Assembly: GCA_035653615.1 (NCBI GenBank)
Contig: DASRBN010000035.1
Coordinates: 186,001-250,000, forward strand
Length of the DNA: 64,000 nt
DNA from: Ktedonobacteraceae bacterium
GTDB taxonomy: Bacteria; Chloroflexota; Ktedonobacteria; Ktedonobacterales; Ktedonobacteraceae
Direction: 5' to 3'
This document shows, one piece after another, positions 26,029-36,479 of the stretch. The position numbers were made by a program, and so were the translations under genes. The first letter of the stretch is position 1, and every line of letters begins with the position of its first letter. The notes under the pieces were generated by a model. That model saw only the letters and a program-made list of their open reading frames with translations, was not told the origin of the DNA and searched no databases.

Positions 26029-26083
26029 ATGATAAACTAAGTACATACAAGACGTCAATGATGAAATTTTCTGGCGATTCTTT

Positions 26084-26213
26084 AGAAGAAGGCAGGCTGA
26101 GATTCTTCGCTGCGCTCAGAATGACAGGCTTAAGAAGAAGGCAGGCTGAGATTCTTCGCTGCGCTCAGAATGACATGCCTTCGACATGCCTGGGTATGTT
26201 GAAGGCATGTCAT
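26084..26213. repeat. Dispersed repeat family A, copy 3: tandem half-elements plus short hairpin
   Basis: Two direct copies, 49 bp apart (from 26084 and from 26133), each carry the core ATTCTTCGCTGCGCTCAGAA in the same orientation. The second runs into ATGACATGCCTTC (26170-26182), inverted at 26201-26213. Unlike copies 1, 2 and 4, the long arm is not inverted. It lies upstream of the ABC exporter gene. Confidence 0.8.
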
Positions 26214-33459: not shown

Positions 33460-33885
33460 TTAAATTACTTCAACCTTCCCCTCGATTACCGAATCGTCAT
33501 CCTGCACCCAGAAAACGCGAACATAGGGTGGCTCAGGATAGAAACGATGGGAGAAAATGACGTAGAACAGTTTGTTGCGTTTGGCCCAATCTTTATCGCG
33601 CCGGGATGGATAGGCCTCGGATTTGGGATGGGAATGATAATAGATCATTTCACCATCATACTCGTCGATATCCTCGAAGATACGCAGCAGGTCGGCCTCG
33701 CCGATAATGGAGAAATCATCGGGATGTTCGGCGGCATTCGCGGTGGGATAGTGCCGGACGACCTGACCGTCTTTAGTACCAAGCGCGCCGCAGGCCTCGT
33801 TGGGATAGCCCGCGACAATATGCGCCACCATTTCATCGTAGATCGCTCGCGGAATACGAACGATAAAACCTTCTTTAACTTCCAT
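33460..33885 (-). CDS. mec: JAMM/MPN+ metalloprotease acting on the CysO sulfur carrier
   Basis: 141 residues. The JAMM zinc site is intact: Glu30, then H84-S-H86-P through S94-x2-D97 (HSHPKSEAYPSRRD). In mycobacteria Mec cleaves cysteine from the CysO-cysteine adduct. It begins 3 bp after the cysM stop, so the two are translationally linked. Since CysO here ends in two residues beyond GG, this enzyme may also trim the precursor. The unit order is moeZ-like, cysO, cysM, mec. Confidence 0.9.
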   Translation of the reverse strand: MEVKEGFIVRIPRAIYDEMVAHIVAGYPNEACGALGTKDGQVVRHYPTANAAEHPDDFSIIGEADLLRIFEDIDEYDGEMIYYHSHPKSEAYPSRRDKDWAKRNKLFYVIFSHRFYPEPPYVRVFWVQDDDSVIEGKVEVI

Positions 33886-33888
33886 AAC

Positions 33889-34821
33889 CTACCATAATAA
33901 TTTCGCTTCCAGATCGTCCTCAAGTTGATCCAGGTCACGCGTCCACAGGTCTTCGCTGAGGTATTTCCAACCGCCATCGGCGAGGATGACGACGATTTTA
34001 CCCTGCTCCATGCTGTTAGCGACGCGCAGCGCAGCGTGCAGGGCGGCCCCGCATGATGGGCCGGCGAAGATACCTTCTTGATCTTTCAACTGGCGGGTGC
34101 GGCGTACAGCGTCTGAGCTGGTTACCAGAATTTTGGCGTCGAGCAGCGATTGATCGAGTACGGGCGGCACAAAACCATCTTCCAGGCTGCGCAATCCCTG
34201 TACGCCATCGCCTTGCAATGGCTCAGCCGCGACGACCTTGATAGCAGGATTATATTCTTTCAGGCGACGAGCATTGCCGGTAAGGGTGCCACCGGTACCG
34301 AGACCGGCCACAAAGACATCGAGGTCCGGCAGATCACGAATGATTTCAACCGCCGTGCCCTCGTAATGAGCGCCGGGGTTGGCATCGTTGCCATACTGGT
34401 AGAGCATTACGTAGCGATCATCGCGGGCCAATTCCTGTGCCAGGCGTACCGCGCCATTGCTGCCCAACGAGCCATCGGAATAAATGATCTTCGCGCCGTA
34501 GAGTTCGAGCATCTGGCGGCGCTCCTGCGTCACGTTGTCCGGCATGACTGCTGTAAAACCATAGCCCTTGACGCGAGCAATCATGGCCAGCGCGATGCCG
34601 GTATTGCCACTGGTTGGCTCCAGCAAGATGGAACCGGGGGTAAGTTTGCCACTCGCCTCGGCCTCTTCGATCATTTTTTTGGCGATGCGGTCCTTGATAC
34701 TGCCGGTGGGATTCGCGCCCTCAAGTTTGGCAAAAAGTTGTACTCCGGGGCGTGGGCTGAAGCTTTTTAGCTCAACAAGCGGCGTATTTCCAATCGTATC
34801 TAGTATATTGCTGTAGAGCAT
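33889..34821 (-). CDS. cysM: CysO-dependent cysteine synthase (CysM type)
   Basis: 310-residue PLP enzyme. PLP Lys in NPTGSIKDRIAKKMIEEAE, phosphate-binding EPTSGNTGIALAMIA and the GLGTGGTLTG loop are present. The C-terminal segment EGIFAGPSCGAALHAAL and the end LADGGWKYLSEDLW match the mycobacterial CysM that adds CysO-thiocarboxylate sulfur to O-phosphoserine, including an arginine-bearing D-A-V-R-R-T-R block. ATG 34821 is preceded by GAGGGGG. Location between cysO and mec supports the assignment over a plain CysK. Confidence 0.92.
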   Translation of the reverse strand: MLYSNILDTIGNTPLVELKSFSPRPGVQLFAKLEGANPTGSIKDRIAKKMIEEAEASGKLTPGSILLEPTSGNTGIALAMIARVKGYGFTAVMPDNVTQERRQMLELYGAKIIYSDGSLGSNGAVRLAQELARDDRYVMLYQYGNDANPGAHYEGTAVEIIRDLPDLDVFVAGLGTGGTLTGNARRLKEYNPAIKVVAAEPLQGDGVQGLRSLEDGFVPPVLDQSLLDAKILVTSSDAVRRTRQLKDQEGIFAGPSCGAALHAALRVANSMEQGKIVVILADGGWKYLSEDLWTRDLDQLEDDLEAKLLW

Positions 34822-34868
34822 ATTTTTGTTCCCCCTCTTTTTGAAACTGGCACCCAATCGAACGCGGA

Positions 34869-34944
34869 CGACCACAAGGGTTGCCCCTACGACATCCCAC
34901 CACGGGCGGGCGACCACAAAGGTGCGCCTCTACGACATCCCACC
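34869..34944. repeat. Dispersed repeat, family C, two tandem copies
   Basis: CGACCACAAGGGTTGCCCCT and following bases (34869-34901) recur with few changes at 34911-34944, both ending TACGACATCCCACC. The second copy covers the last four codons and stop of cysO. A related CCCCTACGACG string occurs near 960. Confidence 0.8.
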
Positions 34945-35208
34945 TGCCATGGCGGGCAACAGGATAACTGTGTCATTCGGACCAACGGAAGTCTCTAATC
35001 CGCCCTGCAAAAAGCGTACATCCTGGTCATTGACATAGATATTAATATAGCGGCTCAGCTGGTCTTCCGGCTGAATCTGTTCTTTCAACGCGGGAAAGCG
35101 CCTGTATAGATCGTTCAAAACTTCGGTGAGAGTGTTTCCCTCAGCGCTTACCTGCTTCGACCCACCTACAGAGGCGCGCAGGACGGGCGCAAGACGAACG
35201 GTTGCCAT
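34930..35208 (-). CDS. cysO: Sulfur-carrier protein CysO, with Met-Ser after the diglycine
   Basis: 92-residue ubiquitin-fold protein. VSAEGNTLTEVLNDLYRRFP, then the near-diagnostic INIYVNDQDVRFLQGGLET and DTVILLPAMAGG match CysO. The known carrier ends in GG, on which a thiocarboxylate is built. Here two more residues, Met-Ser, follow before TAG, so the C-terminus must be trimmed before activation or the protein is inactive. The extra codons lie inside a family C repeat. The gene follows the moeZ-like gene by 80 bp and precedes cysM by 108 bp. Confidence 0.92.
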   Translation of the reverse strand: MATVRLAPVLRASVGGSKQVSAEGNTLTEVLNDLYRRFPALKEQIQPEDQLSRYINIYVNDQDVRFLQGGLETSVGPNDTVILLPAMAGGMS

Positions 35209-35288: not shown

Positions 35289-36479
35289 TTACCTTGCCGG
35301 AACCGCGCAGACATCGGCGTATGTCGGCAGGTCTTCTGGGTGCGCATGCTCGCCGCAGGCTGGACAATTGGGGTCGCGGAAGAGGCGCAGTTCGCTGAAC
35401 TCGCCGGCCAGCGCGTCGTAGGTCATCAGGCGACCGACCAGGGGATCACCGATACCAAGCAGCAGTTTGATGGTCTCGGTTGCCTGCAGCAGGCCGATAA
35501 TGCCGGGAAGCACTCCCAGGACGCCTGCCTCCGCGCAACTGGGGGCCAGCGCGGGAGGCGGCGGCTCGGGGTAGAGACAGCGATAGCAAGGTCCCTCATA
35601 TGGTTTGAAAACGGTCAATTGACCTTCGAAGCGGAACACGCTGCCATGCACAACCGGCTTATTGGCAATGATCGCTGCATCATTGAGCAAATAGCGGGTC
35701 GGGAAATTGTCGGTGCCATCGATGACTACATCATAATCGGCGATGATGCGGGCTACATTGGTCTCGTCGAGGCGTTCAATGTAGGTGATGATCTTTACAT
35801 CGGGGTTCAACGCTTCTATGGTTTCACGCGCGGACTCGGCCTTATACTGTCCTACACGTTTGGTGTTGTGGATTATTTGTCGCTGCAGGTTGCTCTCTTC
35901 TACCACGTCGTCGTCGATAATGCCAATTGTACCGACTCCGGCTGCAGCCAGGTAATAGGCCGCGGGGGAACCAAGACCACCGGCGCCGAGCAAGAGGACC
36001 TTCGAATCAAGCAGTTTGAACTGGCCCTGCTCGCCGACTTCGGGGATCAGCAGATGACGGCTATAGCGTTTGGCCTGGGCTTCGGTCATTGTGCGAGGCT
36101 GCACGAATGGAAAACCGCTGGCCTTCCACTGCCCAAAGCCGCCCGACATGGAGATGGCGTTGTCGTAGCCCATCTGCTTCAGCGTGGCACCGGCCATGAG
36201 CGAGCGCACGCCGCCCGCACAATAGAGCACGACCGTCTTTGACTTATCGGGAACAGCTTCTTCGATCTGTAGTTCGAGATAGCCGCGCGGTACATGAATG
36301 GCGCCGGGGATATGCCCCTCGTTCCATTCAATCTTCTCACGCACGTCTACGAGAACAATTTCCTGGTCGTCCGGCGCAGCGTCTTGCTGCTGGCCCAGGT
36401 ACTCACGCACCTGAGCTGGAGTCCACTCCGGCACTTGTTTGCGAGCTTGCCGCATAATTTCGCGGGATGCCTCACCCAT
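35289..36479 (-). CDS. MoeZ-like E1 enzyme with the rhodanese domain at the N-terminus
   Basis: 396 residues. Residues 15-115 are a rhodanese with active loop C-A-G-G-V-R (in VLYCAGGVRS). Residues about 135-385 are a ThiF/MoeB adenylyltransferase: GLGSPAAYYLAAAGVG nucleotide loop, DDDVVEESNLQRQI, DGTDNFPTRY, and Zn pairs CYRC and CPAC. It should adenylate the CysO diglycine and transfer sulfur from its persulfide. MoeZ and MOCS3 have the opposite order (E1 then rhodanese). It is the first gene of the cysteine unit, with a palindrome 27 bp upstream. Confidence 0.9.
   Translation of the reverse strand: MGEASREIMRQARKQVPEWTPAQVREYLGQQQDAAPDDQEIVLVDVREKIEWNEGHIPGAIHVPRGYLELQIEEAVPDKSKTVVLYCAGGVRSLMAGATLKQMGYDNAISMSGGFGQWKASGFPFVQPRTMTEAQAKRYSRHLLIPEVGEQGQFKLLDSKVLLLGAGGLGSPAAYYLAAAGVGTIGIIDDDVVEESNLQRQIIHNTKRVGQYKAESARETIEALNPDVKIITYIERLDETNVARIIADYDVVIDGTDNFPTRYLLNDAAIIANKPVVHGSVFRFEGQLTVFKPYEGPCYRCLYPEPPPPALAPSCAEAGVLGVLPGIIGLLQATETIKLLLGIGDPLVGRLMTYDALAGEFSELRLFRDPNCPACGEHAHPEDLPTYADVCAVPAR

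What the first reader, a model, noticed from the sequence alone, without database searches (positions are those of the whole stretch)
34869..34944. A dispersed repeat encodes the functional end of cysO
The tandem family C repeats share TACGACATCCCACC. In the second copy this reads, on the minus strand, GGT-GGG-ATG-TCG-TAG, so the repeat itself codes Gly-Gly-Met-Ser-stop. The essential diglycine of the carrier appears to be supplied by a mobile-type repeat, which is a striking example of repeat capture.
Basis: seen in the sequence. Interest (0 to 1): 0.5.

Follow-up and report, generated by a model that had tools for sequence, protein, structure and literature searches.

The report
REP repeat supplies cysO's stop codon
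A short mobile-type hairpin repeat sits at the very end of a sulfur-carrier gene in a Ktedonobacteria-like bacterium and gives it its stop codon, but the essential Gly-Gly tail appears to be older than the repeat; such stop-codon donation is already described for this class of repeat, so this is a tidy but ordinary example.

Summary
In detail: TACGACATCCCACC occurs twice (34888-34901, 34931-34944) in a 43-bp tandem, and on the minus strand the copy at cysO reads GGT GGG ATG TCG TAG. The exact 14-mer occurs nowhere else in the held 6.6-Mb genome. The dispersed element is a 25-bp hairpin, GTAGGGGCGACCCTTGTGGTCGCCC (20 places with up to 3 mismatches; none for the reversed control); its conservation starts at GTAG and does not include the Gly-Gly codons. 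It has the anatomy of a GTAG-class REP (repetitive extragenic palindrome). The 29 best-matching cysO loci of relatives all keep PAMAGG plus a short variable tail with no repeat there; 20 of those 29 genomes have no copy of the repeat. So Gly-Gly is ancestral. What the repeat supplies is the stop codon, the TAG inside GTAG. Eleven bases of cysO tail were then, most simply, copied with the REP in a local tandem duplication, so the 'capture' runs from gene into repeat. Stop-codon donation by GTAG REPs is already in print (PMC3733652). Four other Pfam-recognised genes of this genome end on a REP's TAG. In one relative a RAYT-type transposase gene is flanked by this repeat. Low interest.

The parts
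34930..35208 (-). cysO-like sulfur carrier, 92 aa, C-terminus PAMAGG-MS (capped diglycine)
   Evidence: ORF; PF02597 ThiS 48.1 bits, cut-off 22.5
34908..34933 (-). REP copy proximal to cysO (GTAGAGGCGCACCTTTGTGGTCGCCC; one inserted base relative to the consensus); its TAG (34930-34932) is the cysO stop codon
34866..34890 (-). REP copy distal to cysO (GTAGGGGCAACCCTTGTGGTCGTCC, 2 mismatches to the 25-bp consensus)
   Evidence: G000:C35:220866-220890
34906..34944 (-). tandem unit A: 11 bases of cysO tail plus REP
   Evidence: pairwise alignment of the two units; TRF
34864..34901 (-). tandem unit B: copy of the 11 bases of cysO tail (here not coding for CysO) plus REP
33889..34821 (-). cysM-like cysteine synthase; the ATG at 34821 (MLYSNILDTIG) matches the start in relatives; the longer mechanical ORF to 34917 reads through the distal REP unit and is probably spurious
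   Evidence: (scanned as 33889-34809)
33460..33885 (-). JAMM/JAB metalloprotease (Mec-like), candidate for removing the residues after Gly-Gly
   Evidence: PF14464 Prok-JAB 61.2 bits, cut-off 25
35289..36479 (-). rhodanese-MoeB/MoeZ-like activating enzyme, upstream gene of the apparent operon
   Evidence: PF00899 and PF00581; NF006444 569.5 bits, cut-off 449

Best explanation
A GTAG-class REP element (25 bp; unpaired GTAG plus an 8-bp-stem hairpin) became fixed at the 3' end of an already complete cysO gene. Its GTAG overlaps the reading frame so that its TAG is now the stop codon, leaving the carrier with a two-residue cap, Met-Ser, after the ancestral Gly-Gly. Then the last 11 bases of cysO before GTAG together with the REP were duplicated in tandem, giving the 43-bp pair between cysO and cysM. 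Shown: the sequence anatomy, the orthologue comparison, the family of copies, and a RAYT-type gene flanked by the same repeat in one relative. Inferred: that a RAYT moved the element, the order of insertion and duplication, and JAMM processing here.
For: The core occurs at 20 places in the own genome with up to 3 mismatches, 0 for the reversed control. Among 18 copies (L046 and L043 left out) the commonest base is at 0.72-1.0 over positions 0-24 and at no more than 0.5 in the flanks. The consensus folds as GTAG plus an 8-bp stem and 5-nt loop, z -5.4. 29 of 29 unnamed relatives' loci and 16 of 16 named Ktedonobacteria loci (overlapping sets) have PAMAGG plus a tail and no REP within 200 bases downstream. 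The exact 14-mer is unique to this tandem. REP TAGs end ORFs of at least 85 codons in 7 of 21 copies, against 34 of 742 control GTAG sites (Fisher p 5e-5); besides cysO four of these are Pfam-recognised proteins. G013:C13 has a RAYT-type gene with this core on both sides. Stop-codon donation by GTAG REPs is stated in PMC3733652 section 15.
Against: No RAYT was found in the own genome (estimated 95% complete): its one Y1 transposase is IS200-type beside tnpB and reaches only 26.6 bits with the RAYT model, cut-off 80. The order of events rests on parsimony: the relatives searched held no second genome of the same genus, so no single-REP or empty site close by was seen. Both window copies are diverged: the proximal one has an inserted base and folds weakly (z -2.0), and the distal one's minimum-energy DNA fold is not the REP hairpin (z -0.5). 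G029 has 217 copies and no hit to the RAYT model; most RAYT-like places scanned in relatives have no core nearby. Some distant homologues have tails after Gly-Gly and no JAMM found in the stretch held.
Confidence: 0.88

Rival explanations
1. One reading: a mobile repeat unit that includes GGTGGGATGTCGTAG inserted at the end of cysO and supplied the essential diglycine.
For: The same 15 bases are identical in both tandem copies.
Against: The exact 14-mer exists only here; flanks before GTAG are unrelated in the other copies; all orthologue loci read have Gly-Gly without the repeat, 20 of 29 of them in genomes with no copy.
Confidence: 0.02
2. Two independent REP insertions side by side (a REP dimer), not one insertion followed by duplication.
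For: REPs often occur as dimers, mostly 20-100 bp apart (PMC3733652 section 5; it adds that head-tail dimers, the type seen here, are absent or rare in most genomes); another head-to-tail pair with a 45-bp period exists at G000:C33:88680-88749.
Against: The 11 bases before each GTAG are identical, 11 of 11, and they are cysO coding sequence; chance identity is about 4^-11 (my arithmetic).
Confidence: 0.06
3. The pair is a maintained RNA element between cysO and cysM (hairpins that set mRNA stability or differential expression), so it is kept for function.
For: Both units form hairpins in the predicted RNA fold; a role of REPs in mRNA stabilisation is hypothesised in PMC3733652 (abstract).
Against: The intercistronic RNA folds no better than shuffles (z 0.43); both copies are diverged from consensus; none of the 29 relatives' loci read has a REP here.
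Confidence: 0.1

Closest known systems
GTAG-class REP elements (Di Nocera, De Gregorio and Rocco 2013, PMC3733652; abstract, passages and sections 5, 15, 16 read)
   Same: 20-40 bp palindrome with unpaired GTAG at one end, dispersed, often near 3' ends of genes; the paper states that GTAG termini often provide a TAG stop codon to flanking ORFs, and that clusters can be reiterated in tandem with flanking DNA.
   Different: I could not compare the consensus with the paper's 24 families, because figures are not held; the paper names Chloroflexi among hosts, and its main text does not mention Ktedonobacter.
REPtron / RAYT (TnpAREP)
   Same: In relative G013 a gene that scores best with the RAYT model is flanked by this same repeat.
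   Different: No RAYT found in the window's own genome.
Capped sulfur-carrier proteins with a JAMM protease (PtmS2 with MV after GG, PtmS1; QbsD; PMC6006322, passages seen)
   Same: Gly-Gly followed by a short cap (here Met-Ser), with a JAMM gene in the same apparent operon.
   Different: Here the end of the cap and the stop are formed with a REP; processing is not tested.

Membership tests
GTAG-class REP | 20-40 bp palindrome able to form a hairpin | tested here: met
   25-bp consensus: 8-bp stem, 5-nt loop, -10.5 kcal/mol as DNA, z -5.4. The window's own copies are worse: proximal z -2.0, distal z -0.5 with another fold
GTAG-class REP | unpaired GTAG at one end | tested here: met
   GTAG in 18 of 20 copies shown; the others read ATAG and GTAT
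GTAG-class REP | dispersed multi-copy family | tested here: met
   20 places in the own genome; 13 of 47 genomes carry it, up to 217 places
GTAG-class REP | RAYT gene flanked by the same REP (REPtron) | tested here: inconclusive
   Not met in the own genome. In G013:C13 a RAYT-type gene (64.2 bits against 26.3 for IS200, but below the RAYT model's cut-off of 80) has cores on both sides
GTAG-class REP | mobilisation by TnpAREP | not testable with these tools
   needs in vitro cleavage or in vivo transposition
CysO/ThiS/MoaD sulfur carrier | ubiquitin-like ThiS-family sequence with Gly-Gly near the C-terminus | tested here: met
   PF02597, 48.1 bits over cut-off 22.5; PAMAGG. NCBIfam's best models (SAMP1, moaD_arch, Urm1_like) are below their cut-offs
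CysO/CysM/Mec pathway | operon with cysteine synthase, JAMM protease and MoeZ-type activator | tested here: met
   JAMM found in 15 of 16 named and 26 of 29 unnamed relatives' loci
CysO/CysM/Mec pathway | thiocarboxylate transfer to make cysteine, release by JAMM | not testable with these tools
   needs biochemistry

The most novel reading that the evidence does not exclude
Capped ubiquitin-like sulfur carriers with an operon JAMM protease are permissive landing sites for mobile DNA: because the protease removes whatever follows Gly-Gly, a REP can rewrite the end of the reading frame and supply its stop codon without cost, so caps drift freely between lineages.
Probability: 0.3. Interest if true: 0.35.

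Novelty: new member of a known kind. Interest (0 to 1): 0.16.

Why it matters
It corrects a claim of repeat-supplied essential residues to a modest, well-precedented one: a REP giving a gene its stop codon. It gives a clean case in Ktedonobacteria, a 25-bp REP family found in 13 of 47 genomes searched in and around the order, with a candidate REPtron in a relative. It also shows how a local duplication can make host coding sequence look like part of a mobile repeat. If caps after Gly-Gly are removed by the JAMM protease, that would explain why such an insertion is tolerated.

Tried and rejected
Rejected: that the 14-mer TACGACATCCCACC is itself a dispersed repeat (2 exact places; the 28 at 2 mismatches are at control level). 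Rejected: that the own-genome Y1 transposase is the mover of this family (IS200 model 140.2 bits against 27 for RAYT, next to tnpB; no core copy at up to 6 mismatches in that 7-kb stretch). Not supported: an unusually stable intercistronic RNA (z 0.43). RAYT-like places in relatives mostly have no core nearby: of 20 places scanned, cores at up to 3 mismatches were in the stretches of G013:C13 (4 copies), G034:C62 (1 copy, 3 mismatches) and G019:C700 (1 copy, 3 mismatches, GTAG replaced by GGAG); 5-mismatch matches were at G013:C13, G019:C700 and G015:C251. In that script the gene's position was mis-set for L147 and L152 (short contig ends), which affects only its hairpin listing, not the core search. 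A strict tie between caps and JAMM is not shown: among the other homologues L070-L084 some have tails but no JAMM found in the stretch held, some end in Gly-Gly exactly, and L074, L075 and L076 gave no usable C-terminus. One search read the tails of 15 minus-strand loci in the wrong orientation; one search replaced those rows. Literature: passages of PMC1949818 gave nothing used; passages of PMC8266576 say GTAG is needed for cleavage by the E. coli TnpAREP; the search for QbsE, QbsD, CysO and JAMM listed 5 papers, of which I opened one, PMC6006322; the first search on CysO and JAMM was used as a listing only, apart from PMC1949818.

Full report
Observation. The minus-strand ORF 34930-35208 (92 aa) ends ...LLPAMAGGMS and matches Pfam ThiS at 48.1 bits. 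It lies between a rhodanese-MoeB gene (35289-36479) and a cysM-like gene (33889-34821) followed by a JAMM protease gene (33460-33885), all on the minus strand. TACGACATCCCACC occurs exactly at 34888-34901 and 34931-34944, inside a 43-bp tandem called by TRF. The reading GGT GGG ATG TCG TAG is correct.

Where it comes from. The best cysO relatives in the named collection are Ktedonobacteria (16 loci, 71-83% identity), and the genomes listed as 'same family' include contigs of the same lengths as those named records, so the host is very probably a Ktedonobacteria member; this is an inference.

What is dispersed. In the held genome (6,586,252 bases, 44 contigs) the exact 14-mer exists only at these two places. 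With up to 2 mismatches there are 30 matches against 26 for the reversed pattern, so the rest are at control level. Another stretch of the same tandem is dispersed: GCGACCACAAGGGTCGCCCCTAC has 20 places at up to 3 mismatches and none for the reversed control, and the 25-bp form GTAGGGGCGACCCTTGTGGTCGCCC also has 20. These searches count substitutions only, so the proximal window copy, with an inserted base, is not among the 20. I aligned the 20 copies in GTAG orientation and counted bases on 18 of them (dropped: L046, the window's own distal copy, and L043, neighbour of L042). The commonest base reaches 0.72-1.0 at every position from 0 (G of GTAG) to 24, and 0.28-0.5 in the 25 positions before and the 23 after. 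The element therefore begins at GTAG. The bases GGTGGGATGTC in front of it are not part of it.

What it is. The consensus folds, as single-stranded DNA, into an unpaired GTAG followed by an 8-bp stem with a 5-nt loop (-10.5 kcal/mol, z -5.4). The two window copies are diverged: the proximal one (folded without the first G) still forms a hairpin, z -2.0; the distal one prefers another fold, z -0.5. GTAG is present in 18 of 20 copies. This is the anatomy of a GTAG-class REP as described in PMC3733652 (abstract, passages and sections 5, 15 and 16 read). The core is found in 13 of 47 genomes searched (own plus 46 relatives), up to 217 places in one of them (G029), with no match for the reversed control in any of the 47.

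Mover. In the own genome the only Y1 transposase found is IS200-type beside tnpB, and the RAYT model reaches 26.6 bits against a cut-off of 80. In relative G013, a gene at C13:80406-80786 scores 64.2 bits with the RAYT model (below its cut-off of 80) and 26.3 with IS200. In the 3.6-kb stretch around it lie four cores at up to 3 mismatches, one on one side and three on the other, plus two at 5 mismatches. G013 has 68 such places in about 5.9 Mb, so about 0.04 would be expected in 3.6 kb (my arithmetic). G034:C62 has one 3-mismatch copy near another RAYT-type gene, G019:C700 one with GGAG in place of GTAG, and 17 of the 20 RAYT-like places scanned had no core at up to 3 mismatches, the second one of G013 among them. 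That a RAYT moved the window's copies is therefore an inference.

Diglycine is ancestral. In the named collection, 16 of 16 Ktedonobacteria loci (L054-L069) have PAMAGG followed by 1-6 residues, and none has the core within 200 bases downstream at up to 6 mismatches. In unnamed relatives, 54 of 61 genomes (own included) had a match and loci were taken for the 30 best places, own included. The 29 others (L086-L114) all have PAMAGG plus a tail (R, GQE, SQE, CQQN, SR, F, RGLVTK, DHH, Q, QG, AS or ES), and none has a core within 200 bases downstream at up to 7 mismatches. The two sets overlap, and the weaker matches were not read. Of those 29 genomes, 20 have no copy of the repeat at up to 3 mismatches and 9 have 1 to 68. 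Gly-Gly therefore does not come from the repeat.

What the repeat did supply. The cysO stop codon is the TAG inside the proximal REP's GTAG (34930-34933). In the same genome REP TAGs end ORFs of at least 85 codons in 7 of 21 copies (the 20 plus the proximal one), against 18 of 396 GTAG sites in the window and 16 of 346 in 28 other loci of this genome (Fisher p 5e-5). At 100 codons it is 5 of 21 (p 7e-4) and at 150 codons 4 of 21 (p 1e-3), where cysO itself, 92 aa, no longer counts. The control sites include the window's own REPs, and sites in the first 900 bases of a sequence were left out. The 85-codon threshold was chosen so that cysO counts. Of the six ORFs other than cysO at that threshold, four match Pfam: a CheA-like protein, a chemotaxis receptor, an HU-type protein and the NADH dehydrogenase 30-kDa subunit; two match nothing. 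Such donation is already in print: PMC3733652 says that GTAG termini often provide the TAG stop codon to flanking ORFs (section 15).

Tandem. The two units share GGTGGGATGTC, the REP and GC (39 and 38 bases with one gap and four mismatches). The first 11 bases are cysO coding sequence. The simplest order is REP arrival at the end of cysO, then a tandem duplication of 11 bases of tail plus REP. PMC3733652 describes REP clusters reiterated in tandem along with flanking DNA (section 5). The order is inference.

Why it may be harmless. Capped sulfur carriers typically need a protease to expose Gly-Gly: PMC6006322 (passages seen) describes PtmS2 with MV after GG, a clustered JAMM protease gene, and QbsD as precedent. 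The window's operon has a JAMM gene, as do 15 of 16 named Ktedonobacteria loci (in the other the contig ends after 625 bases) and 26 of 29 unnamed loci (one is that same contig end; two show none in the 1.5 kb held on each side). Against a strict rule, some distant homologues have tails and no JAMM found nearby, and some end in Gly-Gly exactly. That the Met-Ser cap is removed here is inference. A regulatory RNA role is not supported by folding (z 0.43).

Verdict. The sequence reading is right, the claimed repeat capture of the diglycine is not. It is a GTAG REP that donates a stop codon, an instance of a published phenomenon. In the held library no paper had both Ktedonobacter and 'repetitive extragenic palindromic', and only PMC3733652 held REP, RAYT, Chloroflexi and stop codon together; these are the only searches behind any statement that this host group's REPs are little described.

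Noticed in passing
window 34821-34917 (-): The mechanical cysM ORF extends in frame through the distal REP unit to a GTG at 34917 (342 aa); relatives start at the ATG equivalent to 34821, so automatic annotation could wrongly include REP sequence in CysM.
   Followed up: partly
L035 and L053 (G000:C37:298677 and 294035): A CheA-like gene and a chemotaxis receptor gene, whose REPs lie about 4.6 kb apart, both end on a REP's TAG.
   Followed up: partly
L042 (G000:C33:88680-88749): A second head-to-tail REP pair with a 45-bp period and a different spacer in the same genome.
   Followed up: no
L162 (G013:C13:78800-82400): Candidate REPtron: RAYT-type gene with several cores of the same REP family on both sides.
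   Followed up: partly
G029 (whole genome): 217 copies of the core in a 3.3-Mb genome of the same order but no match to the RAYT model, so the mover is missing, unassembled or of another kind.
   Followed up: no
window 26080-26175: A 49-bp tandem repeat (97% matches) containing GATTCTTCGCTGCGCTCAGAATGACAGG, not like the REP by eye; not examined.
   Followed up: no
L002 and L003 (G000:C21:16329-16595, G000:C35:200294-200548): Two further ThiS-like homologues in the same genome: one ends VAGGQPGTH (capped Gly-Gly), the other ends LPTNGKN with no Gly-Gly.
   Followed up: no
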